Source: Flavobacteriaceae bacterium (lineage in GTDB: Bacteria; Bacteroidota; Bacteroidia; Flavobacteriales; Flavobacteriaceae). From it: DNA of 64,000 nucleotides. The notes under the pieces were generated by a model. The model did no database searches. It worked only from the letters and a program-made list of their open reading frames with translations, and was not told the DNA's origin. The translations under genes were made by a program, and so were the position numbers. The stretch covers positions 3,132,321 through 3,196,320 of the forward strand of contig CP031964.1 in assembly GCA_003443635.1 (NCBI GenBank), read 5' to 3'. This document shows positions 4,688 to 53,589 of the stretch, piece after piece; the stretch's first letter is position 1; each line of letters opens with the position of its first letter.

Positions 4688-5341
4688 ATGAAGAACAAAT
4701 TTATTTTAACACTAATAATGGTGTTTTTAGCATATGCTTGTAGTACAGACGATGAAACATTCGATAATCAAACCATTAACGAAATTGAAAATTTAAATCA
4801 AGAATTTCCAAACGAAGATAATTTAATAATCATAAATGCTTCTGATACAATATCTTCAAGCAATCCATTAAACTTAAACATTACAAATAATTCTATTCCT
4901 GAACACGAAAATTCTTTTCCAGGCGGTGAAGATATTGGAGATGTTCCAGACAACGGAGGTAATGAAAGTGATAGCGATAATGGTGGTGATTCTAGTAATA
5001 CAATTTGTTCTAGTGCTGGAATTCCAACTGCCACAGTTGAAGATTTAGAGCTCGGTATAGTTTTAGCAATAACTTATAGTTCTTCATTATCAATAGGTGA
5101 AATAAATTGTGTACGACAAGAATACTTTCAAGATCCGGAACTACTTTGTTTAAGTTTAAAAAGACCCCCTTTTCCAGCTAATGATCCTTATCACGATACA
5201 TGGGTTATCACAGGCGAAGGTTGTGATTCAGGTCCAGGCGGAGGATCAGCAGGTGGAGGGTCAACAGGTGGAGTATCATCAAGCACTCCTGTTACTAATA
5301 AAACACAGAATGATCCTAGAGTTAGCATATCTGTGAATTAA
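4688..5341 (+). CDS. Secreted lipoprotein, Gly/Asn/Asp-rich, unknown function
   Basis: 217 residues. Signal peptide with lipobox (FLAYAC, lipid-attached Cys18), followed by a low-complexity stretch rich in N, D, E, S and G (about 20-105). A short folded part carries four further cysteines (TICSSAG, EINCVRQ, LLCLSL, GEGCDSG), and a glycine-serine tail ends the protein. No known domain recognised. Eight bases separate it from the CHAT gene, so they form one operon. The disordered architecture and position make it a possible partner or substrate of the CHAT protein, which is inference. Confidence 0.65.
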   Translation: MKNKFILTLIMVFLAYACSTDDETFDNQTINEIENLNQEFPNEDNLIIINASDTISSSNPLNLNITNNSIPEHENSFPGGEDIGDVPDNGGNESDSDNGGDSSNTICSSAGIPTATVEDLELGIVLAITYSSSLSIGEINCVRQEYFQDPELLCLSLKRPPFPANDPYHDTWVITGEGCDSGPGGGSAGGGSTGGVSSSTPVTNKTQNDPRVSISVN

Positions 5342-5349
5342 TTTATTAT

Positions 5350-8115
5350 ATGATTAAAAAAAAACAAAATCAGTATTTTAATTATCTATTAATAAAGTGT
5401 TTTTTGTTGATTTTGTTTTTTTTTATATCCAAAAGTTTTTCACAAAATCGGGTTCAATTCAAAAAACTGATTAATTCTCCTATTTCTAAAAGTAAAAAAA
5501 TACAAAAAGCAGATTCTTTAATTACTATTTTTGAAAGTAATGATATTGATTCTTTGCCCTACATATATAATGATTACGCATATTGGTTATTTGATAACAA
5601 TGAGATAAAAAAAACTATTCTGCATGAAGAGAAAGCTTTAGTCCTCTCCAAAAAAAAAGTTTTTATAGATACTGCTTTTGTGCAAAGAAGCGCTTCATCT
5701 TTAGGGTTTTATTATTCACATAATAATCAATTACAAAAAAGTATTGATGCATACCTTGAAGTCATTCGAATAAATAATAAAACTCGCAGAGCTTCAATAA
5801 CCTACCTTACATTGGCTGATGTTTATGATGCTTTACAAGATTATCATAAAGCTTATAAATATTATGAATTGGCTATTTCCTTATTAATTAATAGCCAACA
5901 AGACAAACATTTTTTAAGAAATGCATATCAAAACTTAACATTTACTTGCTATTCAATAAAAACAAAAGAAAGCCTTAAAAATGGACGAAAATTTGGAAGA
6001 GCAGCTGATTCGCTAGCAGCTATTATTGAAACTCCTACAAGCGAATTATTTAAAATTAAATTAAATTTAGCATTAATGTACAACGAGGAGAAAGCCCTAA
6101 ATTTTAATAGTGCATTACACTATTATAATGAAGCACTCCAAATTGCAAAAAAAGCTAAAGATAGCATCAAAACACGTAGAGTTTATCAAGGATTAGGTGA
6201 TTTATACAATATTTTTGATCACAATAAATCTATAGAGTTTTACAATAAATCTATAGAGTTTGCTAATAAAAAAGATACTCTTTTTTTAAGTGATGTACAT
6301 TATGGTCTAGGGCATACCTATAGTTTTAAAAAAGATTATGATATTAGTTTAAATTATCGGCATAAAGCTCTGGACATTTTAACAAGAAATAATTTTCTTA
6401 ATCCCAAAGAAATAGATTCCACTTTTCTTATCAACTTCCAATATAAGAGGCAACTTTTAATTAATTTACAAGAACTTGCTCAAACCTATTTAAATTATCA
6501 TGAGGATAAAAAAGATGTAGATGTTCTCGAAAAAGTAGTTGCCTATTTTAAAATGTGTGATACTCTTATAGATGCTTTAAAAGCAGATAGTAGTGATTTT
6601 AAATCACGTTTATATTGGCGAGAATTAAGTACGGATATTTATGGAAAAGCTATTAGAGCATGTTACTTAAATAATAATATTGAGGATGCTTTTTATTTTA
6701 TGGAAAAAAATAAAGCTTTATTGTTATTAGAAGACATCTCTAACAAAAAATTTAAACGTGCTTTACGATTACCTCCTAATCTTTTAGAAAAAAGCAGCAT
6801 ACTAAAGAAAAAAATCACTCTAATAAATAATCGTTTATATAATGAAAATATTCTAACTAAAAAGGAAATTGATTCTTTAAAAAAACAACGTATAGACCTG
6901 GGGATCGAACTTTCTTTTCTTGAAAAAGATATTAAGGTTGAAACACTAAATATCGAGACTTCCATATTATCACTTCAAGATGTACAGTATAATTTAAGTA
7001 ACAATGAGGTGATTATAGAGTATCACATCTCTATCGATGATGGTTATGGTATTTTAACTAATAAAGACAATGGGTATGTTCTATTTATTACTAAAGATGA
7101 TACTCATTTTTTTGAGATCGATCAGCTTGGAGAACTAAAAAAAGAAATTATAACTCTAATTAATTCTTTTAAAACTCCTTTTAAAACAAATCAAGATATT
7201 AAAACATTTAGTGCACTTTCTAATACTGTTTTTAATAAACTATTCCCATCTAAGCAAGTACAGCAATTAATTAAGGGTAAAACAGTTACTATTGTTCCTG
7301 ATAATTATTTATCGCTACTCCCTTTCGAAACCTTATCAACCAGTTCGGATAATACGTCTTATTTAATTTATAATACAGAAATACACTACCTCTATTCTAA
7401 TTCTTTTTTAGAAAACACAAAAAAAGAAGGATTTTCTAACAACAAAAGTTTAGCAATAGCTCCTATCAATTTTAAAGATAAAGGCCTATTAACATTAAAT
7501 CATAGTGAGCAAGAAATAAATAGTATTCAAAATTATTATCCTGGTACAATTTTATCAAATACTAATGCTACAAAAACTAATTTTCTTAATGCACTACCTT
7601 CTAGTGGAATTATACATATTGCATCACACGCAAATGCACAAGATAAAAGATCTCCTTGGATCGCTTTTAATGATGAAAACATCACTTTAGAAGAACTGTA
7701 TTTAACTCAAAATAATGCTTCTTTGGTAATGCTTAGTGGTTGTAACACCTCAATAGGCGAGCAAGAAATTGGTGAAGGGGTGATGAGTCTGGCTAGAGGT
7801 TTCTTTTACTCCGGTTCACAAAGTGTCATTTCATCACTTTGGAGTATTGATGATCGCATAACTTCTGAAATCACAAACAGTTTTTATAAAAATTTAAGTG
7901 ATGGGCAAACAAAATCTAAAGCACTACACAATGCTAAATTAACTTATTTAAACAATCATAATTTATCTGAAGCATCTCCTTATTACTGGGCTTCTTTTAT
8001 TTTATTAGGAGAAAATAATACACTTAAACCACCCTCTTCTAAATGGTTTTTCTACTTATTTTTTTTCATATTAGCCTGTATAATTCTTTATTTTATTAAA
8101 AAAAACAAGCCATAA
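5350..8115 (+). CDS. Secreted TPR-CHAT protein (caspase-like fold)
   Basis: 921 residues. N-terminal signal peptide or anchor (about 13-32, ending SKSFSQ), multiple TPR repeats over roughly 60-460, a helical linker, and a C-terminal CHAT domain from about 640 to 880. The expected His-Cys dyad is present: HIASHANAQ (His near 760) and MLSGCNTSIGEQEIGEG (Cys near 797). A final membrane helix (about 895-915) is followed by KKNKP. CHAT domains belong to the caspase-like clan, some being TPR-gated proteases. The signal sequence puts the bulk in the periplasm or at the cell surface. A 20-base exact tandem repeat (6221-6240 and 6242-6261) encodes NKSIEFY-NKSIEFA within a TPR. Operon partner of the upstream lipoprotein. 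Confidence 0.85.
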   Translation: MIKKKQNQYFNYLLIKCFLLILFFFISKSFSQNRVQFKKLINSPISKSKKIQKADSLITIFESNDIDSLPYIYNDYAYWLFDNNEIKKTILHEEKALVLSKKKVFIDTAFVQRSASSLGFYYSHNNQLQKSIDAYLEVIRINNKTRRASITYLTLADVYDALQDYHKAYKYYELAISLLINSQQDKHFLRNAYQNLTFTCYSIKTKESLKNGRKFGRAADSLAAIIETPTSELFKIKLNLALMYNEEKALNFNSALHYYNEALQIAKKAKDSIKTRRVYQGLGDLYNIFDHNKSIEFYNKSIEFANKKDTLFLSDVHYGLGHTYSFKKDYDISLNYRHKALDILTRNNFLNPKEIDSTFLINFQYKRQLLINLQELAQTYLNYHEDKKDVDVLEKVVAYFKMCDTLIDALKADSSDFKSRLYWRELSTDIYGKAIRACYLNNNIEDAFYFMEKNKALLLLEDISNKKFKRALRLPPNLLEKSSILKKKITLINNRLYNENILTKKEIDSLKKQRIDLGIELSFLEKDIKVETLNIETSILSLQDVQYNLSNNEVIIEYHISIDDGYGILTNKDNGYVLFITKDDTHFFEIDQLGELKKEIITLINSFKTPFKTNQDIKTFSALSNTVFNKLFPSKQVQQLIKGKTVTIVPDNYLSLLPFETLSTSSDNTSYLIYNTEIHYLYSNSFLENTKKEGFSNNKSLAIAPINFKDKGLLTLNHSEQEINSIQNYYPGTILSNTNATKTNFLNALPSSGIIHIASHANAQDKRSPWIAFNDENITLEELYLTQNNASLVMLSGCNTSIGEQEIGEGVMSLARGFFYSGSQSVISSLWSIDDRITSEITNSFYKNLSDGQTKSKALHNAKLTYLNNHNLSEASPYYWASFILLGENNTLKPPSSKWFFYLFFFILACIILYFIKKNKP

Positions 8116-8223: not shown

Positions 8224-9840
8224 GTGAACAATTCCTTAGCAACTCAGGTAGAACTATTATTATTTAACAATGCCATCTCTTGTGATAAAGAAGAGTTATC
8301 CTTTCAAATAGAAAGCCATCCTTCCTATCCAAGTCTACATTCCATAACAGGAGTCCTAGATCATTTTAATATCGATAACATCGCTCTGGATGTCCCCATC
8401 AATCAAGAAACACTATCGCAACTCCCTAATTGTTTCTTAGCTCAGATCAAAGATGAAAGCGGAATGAGTTTTGTTATTGTGAACAACAATAATGAAGTTT
8501 ATAATCTCATCTCTGGTGATAAGAAAAAACAAAATGTGTCCTCTAGTGAGTTTCTAGAGAAATTTACCGGCATCATCGTCGCTGTCGAAAAAACAGAAGG
8601 TATTGAACTTAAAAAAAATAACACCTCTAAAGTAAATACTATTCTTATCTCTTTATCTCTAATGCTCTTAGCTGGTCTTTTTATTAAAGTGAGCTCCAGC
8701 TTAAGTACTGCTGTCTACTTTTTATTATCTGCCATAGGTGTCTATATAAGTAGAGCTATTATAAAACAAGAACTGGGTGAACAATCTCTCTTAGGGGATG
8801 CCTTCTGTTCTCAATCTACCAATACAGGCAATAGTTGTAACTCTGTATTATCTTCTAAAGGGGCTCAATTTGGAAGGTATAAGTTAAGTGATTTTAGCAT
8901 GGTTTACTTTATTGGCCTTGTGTTATCTACATTACTATTAACACTTATTGAAAGTAGTTTAACTATCGTATTTGTTTTTAGCTTAATTGCCATCCCTATC
9001 ACAGTGTATTCTATTTACTACCAATATGCAGTTGTAAAACAGTGGTGTTTCTTATGTTTAAGTGTTACTGCTGTACTTTGGATTCAGGCTGCTCTTATTC
9101 TTTCTCTTAATTATAATTCTATTGTACTTTCTAATATTACTCTAAATGCTCTACTGGTGAGCTCCTTTAGTTTCTTATCTGTGTTTACCATCTGGAATAT
9201 ACTCTCTCCTAATATTAAACTCATCAAAGAACTTAAAGAGTCTAAGATCAAGTATTTTAAGTTTAAAAGAGATTACAGCTTGTTTGAGGCTTTATTAAAT
9301 AAATCTACAGTTGTAGATACTACTATTACAGGTGCGTCTGAAGTTGTTTTCGGAAATCCTGAGGCACCTTTAAACATTACACTTATCACAAGTCCGTTTT
9401 GTGGGCATTGTAAACCTGTACATACCTTAATAGAACAGGTACTAAAAAAACATTCTGAAAAGGTTCAGATACATATTCGTTTTAGTGCTCACCAGGCTAA
9501 TACGCCTTTAATTAATATTACCAGTAGGTTGTTAGAGTTGTATCATACTGAAAGCAAAGCAAAATGTTTAGAGGCCATGCATGATATTTATGGAGGCTTA
9601 ACGTCTGAACAGTGGTTTAATAAGTGGGGAGAAACCAATAACAAAGCGCCTTATTTAAATACGCTTAAACTAGCTAGTGAATGGTGTAAGGACAAAAACA
9701 TCAACTTCACTCCTGAGATCTTAATAAACGGACGTTCTTTCCCTAAAGAATACGAACGTTCTGAACTGATCTATTTTATTGAAGATCTCTATGAAAATGC
9801 TAACCTGAAACAAACTAACACTTTACATAAAACTGTATAA
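8224..9840 (+). CDS. Fusion of C39-like domain, VKOR-type membrane domain and thioredoxin domain
   Basis: 538 residues, GTG start; the nearest upstream ATG (8190) is out of frame. Residues about 1-125 look like a C39-peptidase fold (HPSYPSLHSITGVLDHFNI, NNNNEVYNLISGDKK) without the DCG catalytic cysteine motif or the HY histidine. About 135-320 is a membrane domain with VKOR features: a loop cysteine pair FCSQSTNTGNSC (about 195-206) and the active-site WCFLC (about 273-277). About 365-520 is a thioredoxin/DsbA-like domain with FCGHC (about 392-396). This predicts a self-contained oxidative disulfide-forming enzyme, quinone-coupled and in the membrane. It lies 4 bases upstream of the exporter gene and close to a six-cysteine leader peptide, its likely substrate. 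CTC and ATC codons appear more frequent than in neighbouring blocks, a visual impression that hints at transfer. Confidence 0.85.
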   Translation: MNNSLATQVELLLFNNAISCDKEELSFQIESHPSYPSLHSITGVLDHFNIDNIALDVPINQETLSQLPNCFLAQIKDESGMSFVIVNNNNEVYNLISGDKKKQNVSSSEFLEKFTGIIVAVEKTEGIELKKNNTSKVNTILISLSLMLLAGLFIKVSSSLSTAVYFLLSAIGVYISRAIIKQELGEQSLLGDAFCSQSTNTGNSCNSVLSSKGAQFGRYKLSDFSMVYFIGLVLSTLLLTLIESSLTIVFVFSLIAIPITVYSIYYQYAVVKQWCFLCLSVTAVLWIQAALILSLNYNSIVLSNITLNALLVSSFSFLSVFTIWNILSPNIKLIKELKESKIKYFKFKRDYSLFEALLNKSTVVDTTITGASEVVFGNPEAPLNITLITSPFCGHCKPVHTLIEQVLKKHSEKVQIHIRFSAHQANTPLINITSRLLELYHTESKAKCLEAMHDIYGGLTSEQWFNKWGETNNKAPYLNTLKLASEWCKDKNINFTPEILINGRSFPKEYERSELIYFIEDLYENANLKQTNTLHKTV

Positions 9841-9844
9841 GGTA

Positions 9845-12037
9845 TTGAAATTAAAATTTCCATTTTACAAACAAGCCGAGGCTAAAGACTGTGGTCCTAC
9901 CTGTATCAAGATCATTGCTAAACATTATGGTAAGACCATTAGTGCCCAACAATTACGTGAACTCTCTGAAACCACTCGTGAAGGTTCTAGCTTATTAGGC
10001 CTTAGTGATGCAGTGGAATCTCTTGGCTTTCGCTCTCTTGGAGTGAAACTCTCTTTTGAGAAGTTAAAACAAGCCTCCTTTCCCTGTATTGTACATTGGA
10101 ACAAGAACCACTATATCGTGGTCTATAAAATAAAAAAAGATACTGTGTATGTCTCTGATCCTGCTCATGGGCTATTAACATACTCCAAAACTGAGTTTAT
10201 CAAGTTCTGGATCGGTAACAATGCCAATGACGCTACTGAAGAAGGCATTGCCTTACTCTTAGAACCCACACCCTTGTTCTACAACGAAGAGTTTGATGAG
10301 GATAAACAATCCTTTGGCTTTGGGTTTATCTTAAAGTATGTCTATAAATACAAACGGTTTGTCGTACAACTAGCCATTGGTCTGCTTGCTGGGAGTCTAT
10401 TACAACTCATCTTCCCATTCTTAACTCAAAGTGTGGTCGATGTCGGTATTAAAAATCAAGATCTCAACTTTATCTATCTCGTACTTGCAGCTCAACTCTT
10501 CCTATTTGTTGGTAGAGCTTCCCTGGAAATTATTCGGTCTTGGATTCTTTTGCATCTCAGTACACGTATTAATATCTCTCTGATCTCTGATTTCTTTATA
10601 AAGCTCATGAAACTCCCCATCTCTTTCTTTGATGTACGAATGACAGGGGATCTATTACAACGTATTAACGATCATAAGCGTATTGAAAGGATTCTAACCA
10701 CCTCCTCACTTACCATGTTGTTCTCTTTCTTTAATCTGATCGTCTTTAGTTTTGTGCTGGGCTATTACAGCTTACAGATCTTTAGTGTCTTCTTTTTTGG
10801 AAGTTTACTATATGTTGGATGGGTACTCTTCTTCTTTAAACGCAGAAAAGAACTCGATTATAAACGGTTTCATGAAGTCAGTAACGAGCAGAGTAAGGTC
10901 ATTGAGCTTATTAATGGTATGCAGGAGATTAAACTCCACAATGCTGAAAAACGCATGCGATGGAACTGGGAGTTTGTACAGGCACGCCTCTTTAAGATCT
11001 CTACCAAGAATCTTGTCTTAGAACAAACACAATCCGTGGGATCTAATTTTATTAATGAACTCAAGAATATGTTCATTACCATTCTCTCTGCTAAGTTAGT
11101 GGTTGATGGAGATATTACGCTGGGGGCCATGCTGGCCATTACCTCTATCGTAGGGCAGCTCAATGCGCCCATCAGTCAGCTTATTAGTTTTATGAGAGAT
11201 GTCCAAGATGCTAAGATCTCTTTAGATCGTTTAGGAGAAATTCACAATAAAGAGGATGAGGAATTAGCTACTGACGAAAAAGTGAAAACACTCCCTAAAC
11301 ATTCAGACATTCAACTCAATAATATCTCTTTTAGATACATCGGAAGCTTAGAGCCTGTGATTAAAGGGTTATCCTTAACCATTCCTGCTAATAAAACTAC
11401 TGCTATTGTAGGAGTGAGTGGTAGTGGGAAAACCACGCTGATGAAACTCTTACTCAGATTCTATGAGGTAGAACATGGTGATATATCGATCAATAGTTTT
11501 AATCTTAATAATATCTCTCAAAAGGTATGGCGTGAGCACTGTGGGGTGGTCATGCAAGAGGGGTATATCTTTAATAATACTATTGCTCATAATATTGCAG
11601 TGGGACAGGATTATGTGGACAAGGATAAATTAGCTCATGCTATTGATGTGGCCAACATCTCTGATTATATTGATAATCTCCCTCTGGGGGTGAATACTAA
11701 AATAGGAACTGAAGGAACAGGTCTTAGTACTGGACAAAAACAGCGTTTGCTTATTGCTAGAGCTGTCTATAAAAATCCGAGATTTCTATTCTTTGATGAA
11801 GCCACCTCGGCATTGGATGCGAATAATGAAACGGTGATCATGAAAAAACTAAATACTTTTTTTAAAGATAAAACGGCTGTAGTGATTGCACACCGATTAA
11901 GTACTGTAAAAAACGCACATCAGATCGTAGTGCTCGATGGAGGAAAGATCGTGGAAATTGGAAATCATCAACAGCTCATCAAACTAAAAGGAAACTATTA
12001 CAACCTGGTCAAAAATCAACTTGAACTGGGTGATTAA
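9845..12037 (+). CDS. Peptidase-containing ABC transporter (C39-ABC, double-glycine leader processing)
   Basis: 730 residues, TTG start giving MKLKFPFYKQAEAKDCGPTC. The N-terminal C39 cysteine protease domain has Cys16 (DCGPTC), His89 (NKNHYIVV) and Asp105 (VSDPAHG), so it should be active. A six-helix ABC membrane domain spans about 160-440. The nucleotide-binding domain has Walker A GVSGSGKTTL (about 522), signature LSTGQKQR (about 626) and Walker B FLFFDEATSALD. The family cleaves leaders after Gly-Gly and exports the mature peptide. Its substrate is very likely the peptide encoded at 12123; the periplasmic adaptor is encoded at 12666. No TolC-type outer-membrane partner is in the cluster. 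Confidence 0.93.
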   Translation: MKLKFPFYKQAEAKDCGPTCIKIIAKHYGKTISAQQLRELSETTREGSSLLGLSDAVESLGFRSLGVKLSFEKLKQASFPCIVHWNKNHYIVVYKIKKDTVYVSDPAHGLLTYSKTEFIKFWIGNNANDATEEGIALLLEPTPLFYNEEFDEDKQSFGFGFILKYVYKYKRFVVQLAIGLLAGSLLQLIFPFLTQSVVDVGIKNQDLNFIYLVLAAQLFLFVGRASLEIIRSWILLHLSTRINISLISDFFIKLMKLPISFFDVRMTGDLLQRINDHKRIERILTTSSLTMLFSFFNLIVFSFVLGYYSLQIFSVFFFGSLLYVGWVLFFFKRRKELDYKRFHEVSNEQSKVIELINGMQEIKLHNAEKRMRWNWEFVQARLFKISTKNLVLEQTQSVGSNFINELKNMFITILSAKLVVDGDITLGAMLAITSIVGQLNAPISQLISFMRDVQDAKISLDRLGEIHNKEDEELATDEKVKTLPKHSDIQLNNISFRYIGSLEPVIKGLSLTIPANKTTAIVGVSGSGKTTLMKLLLRFYEVEHGDISINSFNLNNISQKVWREHCGVVMQEGYIFNNTIAHNIAVGQDYVDKDKLAHAIDVANISDYIDNLPLGVNTKIGTEGTGLSTGQKQRLLIARAVYKNPRFLFFDEATSALDANNETVIMKKLNTFFKDKTAVVIAHRLSTVKNAHQIVVLDGGKIVEIGNHQQLIKLKGNYYNLVKNQLELGD

Positions 12038-12057
12038 AATATTCTCTTGCAAGGAGT

Positions 12058-12098
12058 AGACACAAACTGTGAGTGTCTTTAAATGTTCACAGTTTTTT
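12058..12098 (+). promoter_or_regulatory. Overlapping alternative hairpins between exporter and leader-peptide genes
   Basis: Hairpin A: AGACAC (12058-12063) with GTGTCT (12073-12078). Hairpin B: AAACTGTGA (12064-12072) with TCACAGTTT (12087-12095), then a T-run to 12098, which is terminator-like. The loop of A is the left arm of B and the right arm of A lies in the loop of B, so they look mutually exclusive. This could set the peptide-to-exporter transcript ratio. Confidence 0.5.
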
Positions 12099-12122
12099 AA
12101 ACAATTATTAAAATTTTAAATC

Positions 12123-12377
12123 ATGAAAAATTTAAAAAACTTAGGGAAAACCCTAAACAAAAATCAACAAAAGCTAATTAATGGGGGAAATCTTCCTGGT
12201 CCTGTTGGAGAAAATGAAGATTGTATTATCCCATCTGGAATAGCTTGTAATCCTCATCCTGGGGCAATGAATGTATGTCGTCACAATGAAGTTTGTGTTC
12301 CATATGATGAAGGGTTGGGCCCATGGATCAATATTAATGAATCTTTAGGAACATGCCTATGTGGATTCCCTATTTAA
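12123..12377 (+). CDS. Double-glycine-leader, six-cysteine secreted peptide precursor
   Basis: 84 residues. The leader is the first 22 residues, ending QQKLINGG, with hydrophobic residues at -4 (Ile) and -12 (Leu) as in bacteriocin/pheromone GG leaders. The predicted 62-residue core starts NLPGPVGENEDC and has cysteines at 34, 42, 52, 58, 78 and 80 (spacing 7, 9, 5, 19, 1), enough for three disulfides. The core is rich in Gly, Pro and Asn and nearly neutral to acidic, unlike most cationic bacteriocins. It sits immediately after the C39-ABC exporter and near the disulfide-forming fusion. The product could be a bacteriocin, a signal or an enzyme inhibitor; I do not recognise the core family. 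Confidence 0.8.
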   Translation: MKNLKNLGKTLNKNQQKLINGGNLPGPVGENEDCIIPSGIACNPHPGAMNVCRHNEVCVPYDEGLGPWININESLGTCLCGFPI

Positions 12378-12665
12378 TTCATTCTTTATAGATAATTCTT
12401 TTATTATTTTAAAGCTATCTTTTGAGAGAGTAAGCTTAAGTTTACTCTCTCTATATTATACTTTAATCATTGTTAATCACTTATTATTCTATAATGAAAT
12501 TTTATATAAGCGAAAAATGAATATAACCCCTAAAATTATCACATAAAAACCAAAATTCATTTTTAAATTTATCCATCGGTTTATTAATAAATTAAACTTA
12601 ATAGGAATGGATTCAAGTCATAAGAATTATTAAATGGTTAATAATCTAAATTTAATTTTATAATT
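12378..12665. other. Intergenic stretch with strong hairpin
   Basis: Between the leader-peptide and HlyD genes. A perfect 10-base inverted repeat GAGAGAGTAA/TTACTCTCTC lies at 12424-12433 and 12442-12451. No long T-run follows, so it may be an mRNA-stabilising or processing stem rather than a classic terminator. No further peptide gene was found; the remainder is AT-rich and featureless. Confidence 0.5.
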
Positions 12666-13958
12666 ATGCCAGAAAACAGTCAACACATAGAACTCCGCAG
12701 TGAAGAAGTCCAAGAGATTCTTGAAGCCACTCCCTCTTGGATGATTCGTTGGGGGAACATCTTAGTACTCTCTCTAATTGTAATGCTCCTCTTTATCTCC
12801 TGGTTTGTAAAGTATCCAGATATCATTGCTTCTCAAGCACTAATCACAACTATAATCCCTCCTCAAAAAGAATATGCCACAATAAACGGTAAAATAGCAT
12901 CTGTTCTAGTCTCGGATAATGATACTTTAAGCTCCGATACTCCTCTTGCCATTCTAGAGAACACAGCTAACTATAATGATGTCTTTCTTCTCAAGTCTAT
13001 TATAGATACTATTGCAGTTAATAATAAATCCTTTGAGTTTCCCATTGCTTCCATTCCTGTTTTAAACCTAGGAGATATTCAACAAAACTACGCTGCCTTT
13101 GAACTTGATTTCTTAAGATATATCAATAATAAAAAATATCGACCTTTCTCTAACGAAGAAAATGCAAATCTCATCTCTAAAAAAGAACTCATCTTTAGGC
13201 TACAAGTACAAAAAGCACAATACGAATCTGGTAAAGCTGAACTAGCACTTCAAAAAAAAGATCTTGATCGTAATAAGGATATGTTTAGTAAAGGTCTTAT
13301 CGCTGCTCAAGCTTATGAGAGAGAAGAGGCTAATTATATTCGAGCTGAAAGTAATTTAACAAGTATTAGCAATTCTATCTCTCAAACCAGAGAGGCCATT
13401 AGTAATGCTAATAAAGCATCTAAAACCACTACAATTAATAAATCTACAGAAGAGGTGTTGCTATTTAAAACGGCAGTTCAATCTTTTAATCAATTAAAAC
13501 GTGCTATTAAAGATTGGGAGCTGCGTTATGTCTTACAGTCTAATATTGATGGAAAGGTTTCTTTTTTAAATACTTGGACGGTAAATCAAACTGTTAATCA
13601 GGGAGATCTGCTTTTTACTATTATCCCTGAAGAGAATTCTGCCTATATCGCTAAATTAAAAACACCTGCTCAAAACTCTGGAAAATTAAAGGTTGGACAA
13701 AGGGTAAATATTAAATTACAGAATTATCCTGATACTGAGTTTGGAACGCTACAAGGGCATATTGAAAGTATTGCCTTATTTCCTGATGAAGAAGGGTTGT
13801 ATCTGGTAAATACTTCGTTACCTAAAACACTGATCACTTCTTATAAAAAAGAAATCCCTTTTAAACATGAAATGAATGGGAGTGCCGAAATTATTACTGA
13901 AGACTTGCGCCTTATTCAGCGTTTCTTCTCCCAACTTAAAAATGTGTTTAACAACTAA
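12666..13958 (+). CDS. HlyD-family periplasmic adaptor of the peptide exporter
   Basis: 430 residues. Short cytoplasmic N-terminus, one membrane helix (about 30-50, ILVLSLIVMLLFISWFV), a lipoyl-like half (INGKIASVLVSDNDTL), a long coiled-coil hairpin (about 155-260, including KDLDRNKDMFSKGLIAAQAYEREEANY), then the second lipoyl half and beta-barrel (VQSNIDGKVSFLNTWTVNQTVNQGDLLFTIIP). This is the membrane-fusion-protein layout that links a C39-ABC exporter to an outer-membrane channel. A 288-base gap separates it from the peptide gene, so it may have its own promoter. Converges on tex with 5 bases between. Confidence 0.88.
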   Translation: MPENSQHIELRSEEVQEILEATPSWMIRWGNILVLSLIVMLLFISWFVKYPDIIASQALITTIIPPQKEYATINGKIASVLVSDNDTLSSDTPLAILENTANYNDVFLLKSIIDTIAVNNKSFEFPIASIPVLNLGDIQQNYAAFELDFLRYINNKKYRPFSNEENANLISKKELIFRLQVQKAQYESGKAELALQKKDLDRNKDMFSKGLIAAQAYEREEANYIRAESNLTSISNSISQTREAISNANKASKTTTINKSTEEVLLFKTAVQSFNQLKRAIKDWELRYVLQSNIDGKVSFLNTWTVNQTVNQGDLLFTIIPEENSAYIAKLKTPAQNSGKLKVGQRVNIKLQNYPDTEFGTLQGHIESIALFPDEEGLYLVNTSLPKTLITSYKKEIPFKHEMNGSAEIITEDLRLIQRFFSQLKNVFNN

Positions 13959-16179: not shown

Positions 16180-16353
16180 TTAAGCAACTTTTTTAATTAA
16201 ATCAAAACATGGGCATTTTTTACAACGTTTGGCTTCAGATTTTTTATATTTTTTACAACATTTGCTTTTACACTTACCAATTACACAGCCGCCACAACTT
16301 TGTATCTCTATAATTCGTTGCTGTTTAAGTGCTTTATCTTTTTTCTTGCCCAT
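16180..16353 (-). CDS. Small Lys/Cys-rich protein (eight cysteines), unknown
   Basis: 57 residues from ATG at 16353 (MGKKKDKALK); an in-frame ATG six codons upstream (16371) is the alternative. Nearly half the chain is Lys or Cys. The cysteines come as SCGGC, GKC, SKCC, KRC, KKC and PC, giving CxxC-like pairs that could bind zinc, copper or an iron-sulfur cluster. No signal peptide, so probably cytosolic. I recall similar short proteins in flavobacteria but no assigned function. A strong hairpin follows the gene. Confidence 0.6.
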   Translation of the reverse strand: MGKKKDKALKQQRIIEIQSCGGCVIGKCKSKCCKKYKKSEAKRCKKCPCFDLIKKVA

Positions 16354-16530
16354 TTTATATTTATAAAACAATGCAAAAATAGTTTATTTTTATTAAATCT
16401 AAATAAGTTTTGTTAAAAATTAACTGATAAATAATCCATTTTAGATAACACTAGTATCAATGAATTCAATAATACTAATTTCCTCTCTTTAGAAAGTTGT
16501 CTCTTTAATAGTGTAAATTTTATTATCCAG

Positions 16531-52476: not shown

Positions 52477-53589
52477 TTAATCCAATAATAATGTTACTAT
52501 TGCAGCTACGATGTCTTGTCTAAAATCTTCATTATAATCACAATTTGCTAATAATACAATTCCCGTTTGATGTTCTGGAAGCATTAATAAAAAACTTCGA
52601 AAACCTTTATCCCCTCCAAAATGTCCAATAGCTCGTTTGTCATTTAAATTATATAATTGAAATCCTAAACCAATATTTTTATAATCCTTAAACGATGGTA
52701 TTATCATTTGTTTTAATTCTGATTTGGTATCTAAATCTCTCAAAATGTTTAACATCCAATAACTTAAATCTTTTGATGAAGCATTTAAAGTACTACTGGG
52801 TGCATGTTCTCTAGTATAAGGGTATACTTTTCGAATGTAAATAGAATTGTCAAACCATTTTGAATGTGGGTGTGTAGTTTTACTATTTGGAATAGAAAAA
52901 TAGTTAAAACTACTAGATTTCATTTTATATGGGTTTAAAACGTAATGTTGTATAACACTTTCAAAAGATTGTTTTGTAACTTCTTCAATCACATAACCTA
53001 GAATATCATAACCAAGATTACTATAATTATATTTAGTTGAAGGCGTATGTCTGAGCTTTAATTTAGTACTTAAAACATAACCTTTAAGACTGTTCTTCTC
53101 ACGATTTTGATTACCCCAATGATAATTATTAATATCAGGTAAGCCAGATGTGTGATTTAATAAACTTTTAATAGTAATAAATTTAACTTGCTCATTAGTA
53201 TATTTTAAATTAGGAATGATATCTATTAATCTATCATTTAACCTTAACTTATTATTTGCAACCAGTTGCATTATCATTTGTGCGGTAAGTAACTTACTAA
53301 TAGATGCAGTATGAAACACAGTGTTTTCTGAAATAGTATCTTTTTCAACAATACTTTTTAAACCATAACCTCTTGTGTAAAAAATAGAATCACTTCTTAC
53401 TATTCCAATAGAGATCCCCGGAATATTGTAGACATTCATTTTAGAAGCTATAATGGAATCTATTTTTGAAACAATTGTATTAGTTGATCCGATTGAAATA
53501 TTCTGCTGGAAAGGAGTTGTACTAGAGGAACAGCTTATCATAAAAATTAAACCAATAAGAGAGAGTTGTTTTATAAAAGTGCTTTTCAT
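52477..53589 (-). CDS. Serine hydrolase lipoprotein (beta-lactamase/class C PBP fold)
   Basis: 370 residues. Lipobox signal (IGLIFMISCSSS). Catalytic motifs SISK (HTASISKLLTAQMI), YNYSNLGYD for Y-x-N and HFGG (AIGHFGGDKGFRS) in the KTG position. Lacks the C-terminal DUF3471 tail. Lies 3 bases downstream of a second serine hydrolase gene on the same strand, so they form an operon. Peptidase or esterase activity in the periplasm is likely; substrate unknown. Confidence 0.8.
   Translation of the reverse strand: MKSTFIKQLSLIGLIFMISCSSSTTPFQQNISIGSTNTIVSKIDSIIASKMNVYNIPGISIGIVRSDSIFYTRGYGLKSIVEKDTISENTVFHTASISKLLTAQMIMQLVANNKLRLNDRLIDIIPNLKYTNEQVKFITIKSLLNHTSGLPDINNYHWGNQNREKNSLKGYVLSTKLKLRHTPSTKYNYSNLGYDILGYVIEEVTKQSFESVIQHYVLNPYKMKSSSFNYFSIPNSKTTHPHSKWFDNSIYIRKVYPYTREHAPSSTLNASSKDLSYWMLNILRDLDTKSELKQMIIPSFKDYKNIGLGFQLYNLNDKRAIGHFGGDKGFRSFLLMLPEHQTGIVLLANCDYNEDFRQDIVAAIVTLLLD

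What the first reader, a model, noticed from the sequence alone, without database searches (positions are those of the whole stretch)
8224..13958. Self-contained system to make, disulfide-bond and export a six-cysteine peptide
Seen: a fusion with VKOR and thioredoxin domains, a C39-ABC exporter with an intact Cys-His-Asp set, an 84-residue precursor with a 22-residue GG leader and six core cysteines, and an HlyD adaptor, all on one strand. Known: C39-ABC proteins cleave GG leaders, and VKOR-thioredoxin proteins form disulfides. Inferred: the core gets three disulfides during export. The core looks acidic to neutral and matches no bacteriocin class I recognise.
Basis: partly seen in the sequence, partly recalled or inferred. 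Interest (0 to 1): 0.75.

Follow-up and report, generated by a model that had tools for sequence, protein, structure and literature searches.

The report
Disulfide peptide arsenal with pseudoknot RNA
This bacterium carries about twenty different small cysteine-rich peptides that share one export tag, one dedicated disulfide-forming and export machine, and one folded RNA signal just ahead of each gene, a combination that points to a large, little-studied class of secreted bacterial mini-proteins.

Summary
In detail: fusion 8224-9840, C39-ABC exporter 9845-12037, 84-aa GG-leader six-cysteine peptide 12123-12377, HlyD 12666-13958. Three things were missed. (1) The 'VKOR-thioredoxin' protein also has an N-terminal, protease-dead Peptidase_C39 domain; six redox cysteines are invariant in 47 of 47 aligned homologues, and the charge pattern predicts that docking domain, VKOR site and thioredoxin all face the cytosol, so oxidation would precede export. 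(2) The locus is one of three near-identical cassettes in a genome with 20 such peptides; leader DNA is conserved (79%), cores are not (32%). Exporter loci with the fusion carry Cys-rich peptides (74 of 79 with at least 4 Cys); exporter loci without it mostly do not (3 of 21). (3) Each of the 20 genes is preceded, 22-31 nt before the ATG, by a conserved element: a hairpin plus two interleaved, covarying stems (H-type pseudoknot), with no Rfam match above cut-off; 53 of 68 sequence-only matches in fetched loci precede such peptides. The maturation-and-export reading is well supported by comparison; the antagonistic (bacteriocin-like) role is inferred, with bacteroidetocins the closest characterised kind. 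Nothing was tested at the bench.

The parts
8224..9840 (+). C39-like + VKOR + thioredoxin fusion, 538 aa (GTG start): proposed leader-docking thiol oxidase
   Evidence: six redox Cys 195/205/275/278/393/396 invariant in 47 of 47
8275..8598 (+). degenerate (protease-dead) Peptidase_C39 domain, residues 18-125 by Pfam
   Evidence: PF03412 E 9e-6, above cut-off; catalytic Cys position not reached in any of 45 matched homologues; AF2 model residues 1-130 align to the PCAT1 peptidase domain, Z 14.9, 128 residues, 3.4 A
8713..9096 (+). VKOR domain, residues 164-291
   Evidence: PF07884 4.7e-12; model residues 158-304 align to Synechococcus VKOR 4nv2, Z 13.5
9340..9783 (+). DsbA-like thioredoxin domain, residues 373-520, CGHC
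   Evidence: PF13462; model residues 360-525 align to ScsC, Z 16.5
9845..12037 (+). C39-peptidase ABC exporter, 730 aa (TTG start), Cys16/His89/Asp105
12035..12096 (+). conserved structured element (hairpin P0, then H-type pseudoknot P1/P2)
   Evidence: model R1 match E 4.2e-18 (a training sequence of that model)
12058..12063 (+). pseudoknot P1, 5' arm AGACAC (pairs with 12073-12078)
12067..12072 (+). pseudoknot P2, 5' arm CTGTGA (pairs with 12087-12092)
12073..12078 (+). pseudoknot P1, 3' arm GTGTCT
12087..12092 (+). pseudoknot P2, 3' arm TCACAG
12123..12188 (+). 22-codon double-glycine leader MKNLKNLGKTLNKNQQKLINGG
   Evidence: homology with sister cassettes ends here (window 12187 or 12194)
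12189..12377 (+). 62-residue six-cysteine core (stop codon included), not alike to the other cores of the genome
12666..13958 (+). HlyD-type periplasmic adaptor, 430 aa

Best explanation
A modular system for secreted disulfide peptides. Shown by comparative sequence: many hypervariable Cys-rich cores share one leader, one exporter type, one oxidase fusion and one upstream structured element. Inferred steps: (1) the hairpin-plus-pseudoknot RNA in the mRNA leader sets expression of each peptide gene; (2) the leader (conserved Leu at -12 and -16, Ile or Val at -4) docks on the protease-dead C39-like domain of the fusion; (3) the thioredoxin domain, recharged by VKOR and quinone, oxidises core cysteines, most likely on the cytosolic side while the leader is attached; (4) the active C39 domain of the ABC exporter cuts after GG and exports the core through HlyD and a TolC-type channel (TolC was not looked for in this genome); (5) the secreted peptides act on competitors, bacteroidetocin-like, without cognate immunity genes. 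I put about 0.75 on steps 2-4 as a disulfide-maturation and export system for these peptides, 0.6 on cytosol-facing oxidation, 0.65 on the element being a cis-regulatory mRNA leader, 0.45 on antagonism as the function.
For: Co-occurrence in 199 genomes of the family: fusion in 29, exporter in 40, leader peptides in 24; 28 of 29 fusion genomes have the exporter; among exporter genomes leader peptides in 21 of 28 with the fusion and 0 of 12 without. Cysteines: of peptides near exporters with the fusion 74 of 79 have at least 4 Cys (71 of 79 an even number) versus 3 of 21 near exporters without it; two such control loci sampled hold a lantibiotic dehydratase and an ATP-grasp protein. Six redox Cys invariant 47 of 47; exporter catalytic Cys 60 of 61, fusion none aligned. 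Structure model: three domains aligned to PCAT1 peptidase, VKOR and DsbA-like folds, Z 13.5-16.5. Topology: K+R 13.8 versus 1.0 per protein on the two sides, 45 of 45; 35 of 35 representatives below 50% identity. Cassette DNA homology stops at the leader's GG codons; leader 79% versus core 32% nt identity. One core shared across genera with 14 synonymous and 1 non-synonymous codon changes in 34. Element. Same gene order and the same stem layout with other letters on a plasmid of Aureibacter tunicatorum, order Cytophagales. In bacteroidetocins, deleting the thiol oxidoreductase gene attenuates toxin activity (PMC6671954 passages).
Against: No peptide, disulfide or RNA has been seen experimentally. 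13 of 38 relative loci with the fusion have no exporter in the stretch fetched, and 16 of 38 no peptide that my model found. Some related fusions sit with LanC-like or glycosyltransferase genes, so the fusion may serve more than one peptide class. Odd Cys numbers in 8 of 79 cores and in 8 of 20 of this genome. Cores are acidic, unlike most membrane-active bacteriocins (recalled). Synthetic bacteroidetocins made without any disulfide step were potent, so disulfides need not be needed for activity. One 4-Cys peptide beside a fusion-less exporter (L165) sits with three thioredoxin-like proteins. The AF2 model is moderate (pLDDT 69, pTM 0.39) and cannot give orientation. A basic residue before CXXC also occurs in a canonical VKOR chain, so that loop says little about topology; without it 33 of 35 still agree.
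Confidence: 0.6

Rival explanations
1. Same system but with canonical orientation: VKOR and thioredoxin act in the periplasm on peptides as or after they are exported; the C39-like domain is an extracytoplasmic relic or binds something else.
Against: Six hydrophobic segments put the N-terminal C39-like domain on the thioredoxin side, and K+R favour that side as cytosolic in 45 of 45; by eye no signal peptide precedes the C39-like domain (no tool run).
Confidence: 0.3
2. The peptides are not toxins but signals, enzyme (protease) inhibitors or host-interaction factors; hypervariability reflects partner diversity.
For: Acidic, disulfide-rich cores; no immunity gene noticed in the clusters (not searched for systematically); one genome holds 20 different cores.
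Against: Bacteroidetocins, the closest tested kind, are toxins and also lack immunity genes (passages of PMC6671954); hypervariable arsenals with cassette duplication suit antagonism.
Confidence: 0.35
3. The conserved upstream element is a DNA element (promoter or operator, or an integron-like recombination site that moves peptide cassettes) rather than a functional RNA.
For: It overlaps the upstream stop codon in the window (12035-12037), and in two copies a 9-bp inverted repeat ends 4 nt before it (read by eye), leaving little room for a separate promoter; no TAnnTTTG box stands at a fixed place before 18 elements; P0 is near-palindromic; the modules it opens look mobile.
Against: Two interleaved stems both covary: in a set found by sequence alone 97.3% of cells pair versus 87.4% after shuffling, 8 of 12 pairs changed on both sides; stem and loop lengths fit an H-type pseudoknot; the distance to the ATG is narrow (22-31 nt in the 20 own genes; 24-32 nt for the middle 80% elsewhere). 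An integrase was not looked for.
Confidence: 0.2
4. The fusion is a general exporter-associated redox protein that keeps cysteines reduced or isomerises them, for peptides that end up as lanthipeptides or metal binders.
For: Some relatives sit beside LanC-like, glycosyltransferase or thiopeptide-type genes. I did not scan all fusion loci for modification enzymes.
Against: VKOR couples to quinone and oxidises (established knowledge); even Cys numbers in 71 of 79.
Confidence: 0.1

Closest known systems
Bacteroidetocins (PMC6671954 passages; PMC8546649 abstract start and passages)
   Same: Bacteroidota, short GG-leader peptides with cysteines, C39-type ABC exporter, a dedicated thiol oxidoreductase gene, disulfides indicated by gel migration, no immunity gene
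   Different: Mature 42-53 aa with 15-16-aa leader, separate 5-TM protein and thiol oxidoreductase genes; here 22-aa leader, 62-aa core, oxidase fused to VKOR and a C39-like domain, HlyD in the cassette, 20 different cores in one genome, shared structured element. 'VKOR' and 'C39' do not occur in the main text of either paper
C39-like domains (CLD) of type I exporters such as HlyB (PMC6363468, passages)
   Same: Protease-dead C39 fold thought to hold the substrate
   Different: Here it is on a predicted quinone-coupled thiol oxidase, not on an ABC transporter
VKOR-thioredoxin fusions (Synechococcus type, PDB 4nv6, 4nv2)
   Same: VKOR four-Cys core plus thioredoxin domain; VKOR part aligns at Z 13.5
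   Different: Extra C39-like domain and an extra hydrophobic segment; predicted inverted orientation. Inverted VKORs in archaea are recalled, not checked (paper not held)
NCBIfam NF047798 leader_Chryseo 'bacteriocin-like protein' and Pfam PF14406 Bacteroid_pep
   Same: GG leaders of Bacteroidota peptides; of 10 peptides scanned in each library, one relative passes the NF047798 cut-off and one passes the PF14406 cut-off
   Different: The window peptide matches neither; two other peptides of this genome score below the cut-offs
Downstream-peptide and glnA RNAs (PMC2864571, passages)
   Same: Structured 5' element ahead of short peptide genes
   Different: Found in cyanobacteria; no Rfam family reached its cut-off on the present element

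Membership tests
PCAT / C39-peptidase ABC exporter | C39 domain with Cys-His-Asp triad plus ABC transporter domains | tested here: met
VKOR family | PF07884 with two loop Cys and a CXXC | tested here: met
   Cys 195, 205, 275, 278 in 47 of 47
C39-like domain (CLD) | C39 fold without catalytic Cys | tested here: met
   PF03412 hit above cut-off; catalytic Cys position not covered in 45 of 45 matched homologues, His kept in 2 and Asp in 7 of 45 (several of these 45 matches are below significance); model residues 1-130 align to PCAT1 peptidase, Z 14.9
C39-like domain (CLD) | binds the substrate | not testable with these tools
   Needs a binding assay
Double-glycine leader peptides | leader ending GG with hydrophobic residues at -4, -7 and -12 (as in LahT, PMC6363468) | tested here: inconclusive
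   GG and Leu -12 invariant and -4 Ile or Val in 26 of 26 leaders that I chose; -7 is an invariant Gln, not hydrophobic
Bacteroidetocins | mature peptide of 42-53 aa | tested here: not met
   Window core 62 aa; the other cores listed are 33-55 aa
Bacteroidetocins | separate 5-TM protein and separate thiol oxidoreductase genes | tested here: not met
   One search shows no such separate genes between 8224 and 13958; the fusion may combine both roles
Bacteroidetocins | core sequence similarity to bacteroidetocin A/B | not tested
   Their sequences were not retrieved
Class IIa bacteriocins | YGNGV motif; Pfam/NCBIfam bacteriocin models | tested here: not met
   Absent from the sequence; no hit at E up to 1
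Any Rfam 15 family (for the element) | match at the gathering score | tested here: not met
   Window at gathering: only a tRNA. Six own-genome loci at E up to 5: only matches below cut-off, one of which (mir-460, 22.4 bits against 52, E 0.28) overlaps one own element

The most novel reading that the evidence does not exclude
A peptide-maturation class spread over Bacteroidota that I did not find described: a cytosol-facing (inverted) VKOR-thioredoxin carrying a protease-dead C39 docking domain oxidises leader-bound precursors before export, making any cysteine-rich core downstream of the leader a substrate, while a new H-type pseudoknot RNA in the 5' leader of each precursor gene coordinates expression of the whole scattered arsenal.
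Probability: 0.4. Interest if true: 0.9.

Novelty: new variant of a known kind. Interest (0 to 1): 0.8.

Why it matters
It gives a genomic rule for finding secreted disulfide-rich mini-proteins whose cores share no sequence: look for the leader, the fusion or the structured element. A leader-docking oxidase would be a programmable way to make disulfide peptides in bacteria, and a protease-derived docking domain would be an alternative to the RiPP recognition element. The pseudoknot is a candidate new cis-regulatory RNA with a narrow, testable regulon. Whether some mesophilic bacteria form disulfides deliberately in the cytosol becomes directly testable.

Tried and rejected
Family and structure libraries for the window peptide: no hit in NCBIfam, Pfam or PADLOC and one unrelated PDB chain at E 0.78; dedicated EGF/WAP profiles were tested only as part of Pfam. 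AF2 of the single peptide: pLDDT 41, uninformative. Homologues of the window core in 397 genomes of the family: only weak matches (E 0.002-0.04) in five other genomes, four of the five with internal stops; rejected. A TAnnTTTG promoter at a fixed place before 18 of the 20 own elements: exact boxes in two, 71-72 nt upstream; not convincing. CHAT-TPR gene 5350-8115 and the 217-aa gene before it as parts of the system: rejected, tblastn finds neither beside the sister cassettes (L018, L022 and 12 kb further upstream of the first). A single hairpin instead of a pseudoknot: P1 and P2 interleave and both covary; mutually exclusive hairpins are not excluded. Literature: searches in the held open library listed no paper that I recognised as describing the fusion in peptide maturation or the RNA; PMC10352776 has no 'VKOR', 'thioredoxin' or 'disulfide' in its main text. 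Subscription papers and preprints were not searchable.

Known biases: the relatives in alignment A3 were located by a script that required P1 and P2 pairing, so its pairing percentages are inflated; A4 (the 20 own elements, placed by position) and A5 (68 hits of a sequence-only model) are the fair tests. Model R1 was built from A3, so 20 of its 22 own-genome hits are training sequences. The 66 loci were fetched because they hold a fusion, an exporter or leader peptide, or (L210-L227) an R1 match. Peptides were found by a pattern that I chose, the same for both groups. Core clusters come from blastp without composition correction and may include chance links between Cys-rich peptides. Genome samples are mostly one per genus and not corrected for phylogeny; E-values of the genome search are for one genome, so about two chance genomes are expected among 199 at 0.01.
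Full report
Observation. The exporter has an intact triad (Cys16, His89, Asp105). The 84-aa peptide has a 22-aa leader, a 62-aa core with six cysteines and net charge -6, and matches no NCBIfam, Pfam or PADLOC model (E up to 1, 1 and 0.01); the one PDB match has E 0.78.

Genome context. The window lies in a 3.35-Mb single-contig genome. Its same-genus genome G059 has a contig of the same length (127,594) and the same cassette as a named record, 'uncultured Flavobacteriaceae bacterium', so I call the family Flavobacteriaceae. The genome holds three copies of the cassette (fusion 98% identical; exporter 99%). The peptide query matched 19 places and the leader query 20; reading them gives 20 short ORFs with the same leader, ten in the three cassettes (6, 3 and 1) and ten elsewhere, away from the only three exporters and fusions found. 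Two of the 20 do not end in a strict GG: one has GS and one GD. Core cysteines number 3 to 7, even in 12 of 20. Leaders are alike (mean pairwise nucleotide identity 79% in the 16 with a 22-aa leader ending GG) and cores are not (32%). Blast of the window cassette against its sisters gives 95-98% identity over the three genes, and matches over element, UTR and leader that end at 12187 or 12194, that is, at the GG codons 12183-12188 or two codons on. So element-UTR-leader is a constant module and the core is the variable one.

A core under selection. The core at genome position 749130-749300 recurs in another genus (L085) behind a different leader: 34 codons compared (stop included), 14 synonymous and 1 non-synonymous change. 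Other core families recur more loosely: 86 cores fall into 13 clusters and 53 singletons; a trio and two pairs compared show 5 to 17 non-synonymous against 5 to 10 synonymous codon changes. So strong purifying selection is shown for one core family, not for all.

Co-occurrence. In 199 genomes of the family (mostly one per genus, own genome included) the fusion is in 29, the exporter in 40, leader peptides in 24. 28 of 29 fusion genomes have the exporter; the exception, G153, has it in three pieces. 21 of 24 leader genomes have the fusion. Among the 40 exporter genomes, leader peptides are found in 21 of 28 with the fusion and 0 of 12 without. The leader model was built from leaders of this genome and of peptides near fusions, so this contrast is partly circular; the next one is less so. 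At locus level the picture is looser: of 38 relative loci with a fusion, 25 have the exporter and 25 HlyD in the stretch fetched, 22 a peptide found by my leader model.

Cysteine test. With one pattern for both groups, peptides on the exporter's strand within 6 kb were collected from 32 loci (of 47 given) that hold exporter and fusion, and from 28 exporter loci without the fusion. A peptide was found in 31 of 32 and 14 of 28 loci. Peptides: 79 versus 21; mean cysteines 5.06 versus 1.71; at least four cysteines 74 versus 3; even numbers 71 of 79 versus 15 of 21 (zeros counted as even). Of the three control exceptions one (L165) sits with three thioredoxin-like proteins. Of control neighbours scanned, one is a lantibiotic dehydratase and one an ATP-grasp protein of the MvdD type, a third had no hit. 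So the same exporter type also serves other peptide classes and the fusion marks the cysteine-rich one.

The fusion. In 47 homologues aligned, cysteines 195, 205 (VKOR loop), 275, 278 (CXXC), 393, 396 (thioredoxin) are invariant; Cys488 is present in 39. The exporter C39 domain has its Cys in 60 of 61; in the 45 fusions that could be matched to an exporter-built profile the match never reaches the Cys position, His is kept in 2 and Asp in 7. That match is weak for many (E 0.15 for the window copy), so the Pfam hit and the fold are the better evidence. An AlphaFold2 model from seven sequences (pLDDT 69, pTM 0.39) aligns in three parts: residues 1-130 with the PCAT1 peptidase domain (8vp5, Z 14.9, 128 residues, 3.4 A) and 1-123 with the LahT protease-leader complex (6mpz, Z 13.9); 158-304 with Synechococcus VKOR (4nv2, Z 13.5); 360-525 with ScsC (5idr, Z 16.5). 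Degenerate C39-like domains are reported to recruit substrate in type I exporters (PMC6363468, passages). I infer that this one docks the leader.

Orientation. Averaged hydropathy gives six hydrophobic segments, so the C39-like domain and the thioredoxin domain lie on the same side. The loops on that side carry 13.8 Lys+Arg per protein against 1.0 on the other, in 45 of 45 sequences (two near-identical own copies dropped); those loops are also longer, and per residue the figures are about 0.16 and 0.05 (my arithmetic). Near the membrane only, in 35 representatives below 50% identity, densities are 0.185 and 0.054 and the side of the redox cysteines is the more positive in 35 of 35, in 33 of 35 without the loop next to CXXC. 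In the canonical VKOR chain 4nv6 the loop between TM2 and TM3 is basic, whereas here it has 0.16 Lys+Arg on average. The positive-inside rule then places docking domain, VKOR site and thioredoxin in the cytosol: an inverted VKOR. Inverted VKORs in some archaea are recalled, not verified. This is a prediction and the strongest lever for an experiment. Recalled, not checked: PCAT exporters have a cavity wide enough for small folded peptides.

The structured element. Every one of the 20 peptide genes has a conserved stretch before its ATG, its last paired block ending 22-31 nt from the ATG; one copy (before 52729-52941) has largely lost P0 and P1. Consensus: a hairpin P0, then 5'-AGACAC-AAA-CUGUGA-GUGUCU-UUAAAUGU-UCACAG, where the first and third blocks pair (P1) and the second and fourth pair (P2), the order of an H-type pseudoknot. 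In the 20 own elements (19 distinct) 92.6% of cells in 17 pairs are paired against 84.3% after shuffling; P0 83.2%, P1 93.0%, P2 100%; 8 pairs changed on both sides (14 of 500 shuffles reach that) and the covariation score is reached by none of 500. A sequence-only model of these 20 found 68 matches in 66 loci; on them P1 is paired in 96.7% and P2 in 98.1% of cells, 97.3% in all against 87.4% shuffled, with 8 of 12 pairs changed on both sides and none of 500 shuffles reaching the score. The larger hand-picked set gives 91.9% and 16 of 17 pairs, but its relatives were selected for pairing.

What follows the element. Of the 68 matches 53 are followed, median 28 nt later, by a GG-type peptide with at least 4 Cys; 4 more have 2-3 Cys, 2 fewer, 3 short ORFs lack a GG in my pattern (two of these look like the same kind of peptide), 3 precede longer ORFs (one of them a fusion gene, in L087), 3 have no ORF (two of these are leaders cut by an early stop). 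Random positions in the same loci: 119 of 20,000. Of 22 elements in 20 loci that I fetched because the structured model R1 matched there, I count 15 followed by a peptide of this kind with at least 4 Cys, two of them with GS or GA instead of GG.

Spread. R1 gives 22 matches at E up to 1e-5 in the own genome and then nothing until E 0.2; 20 are training elements, one precedes a 77-aa two-cysteine peptide without a clear GG, one precedes no peptide. It matches 41 of 199 family genomes at E up to 0.01, a good part of them only weakly, and 7 of 295 class genomes at 1e-4, six of the seven in this family. A genome of another family (G698, L255) has two clear elements (E 1e-12 and 8e-8) before two such peptides. 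The fusion is wider: 24 of 395 class genomes and eight plasmid records of Aureibacter, Spirosoma, Emticicia, Hymenobacter and Parabacteroides. 15 of the 19 class-search loci (L254-L272, some of this family) have a GG-type peptide with at least 4 Cys in the few kilobases fetched (my count). On the Aureibacter tunicatorum plasmid the order is fusion, small ORF, small ORF, exporter, HlyD; both small ORFs are GG-type peptides with the same stem layout in other letters (AGACUU/AAGUCU and GCCUGA/UCAGGC) 23 nt before the ATG. Over all 29 peptides a loose scan found such a layout in 11, against 103 of 1450 shuffled stretches, and several of the 11 look like chance; so outside Flavobacteriaceae the layout is the exception. 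No Rfam family reached its cut-off.

Function. Closest tested kind: bacteroidetocins, with a thiol oxidoreductase whose deletion attenuates activity, a GG leader, a C39-type exporter, disulfides by gel migration and no immunity gene (PMC6671954, passages), aimed at BamA (PMC8546649, title and abstract start). Against a role of the bonds in killing: synthetic bacteroidetocins made without a disulfide step were potent. Hypervariable cores, many per genome and duplicated cassettes fit antagonism; acidic charge fits a protein target better than a membrane. Signals or enzyme inhibitors are not excluded.

Verdict. An ordinary-looking four-gene cluster turns out to be one window on a large peptide family with a distinctive, probably leader-docking oxidase and a new candidate structured RNA. 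New variant of a known kind; interest 0.8.

Noticed in passing
window 5350-8115 and 4688-5341: A TPR-CHAT protein of 921 aa (PF12770 3e-53) preceded by a 217-aa Ser/Gly-rich protein, directly upstream of the cassette; no match to either beside the sister cassettes.
   Followed up: partly
window 16180-16371 (-): A 63-aa protein very rich in Cys and Lys without a GG leader and without any family hit; probably unrelated.
   Followed up: no
L208 2949-3008 (own genome 3270448): The element between an ORF that reads like a thioredoxin-type protein and a long membrane-protein ORF, with no GG peptide behind it; perhaps a decayed peptide gene.
   Followed up: partly
L118 19866-19924; L211 6496-6548: The element 25 nt before ORFs of 145 and 175 aa that look secreted and are not GG peptides, hinting at a wider regulon.
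   Followed up: no
L087 9040-9076: A weak element match (E 1.4e-4) before the fusion gene itself.
   Followed up: no
L160 10408-10466: The element also precedes two-Cys peptides in an exporter cluster where no fusion was found, so it is not limited to the oxidase-linked class.
   Followed up: no
L171 5525-7711: An exporter homologue whose own C39 domain seems to have lost the catalytic Cys and His; apparently the one exception of 61.
   Followed up: no
own genome, before elements 751916, 1767560 and 748741: Inverted repeats, read by eye, end 4 nt (first two) and 30 nt (third, with a T run) before the element, leaving little room for a promoter in the first two.
   Followed up: no
L023, L216, L224: A core family xECxECLPxxPxxxxxxCxGSxxCQxMxDGCxxCV is shared by genomes of three genera.
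   Followed up: partly
L274 6475-8020 (Parabacteroides distasonis plasmid record): The fusion appears split into a C39-domain gene and a thioredoxin-domain gene that overlap, beside a short GG-type Cys-rich ORF.
   Followed up: no
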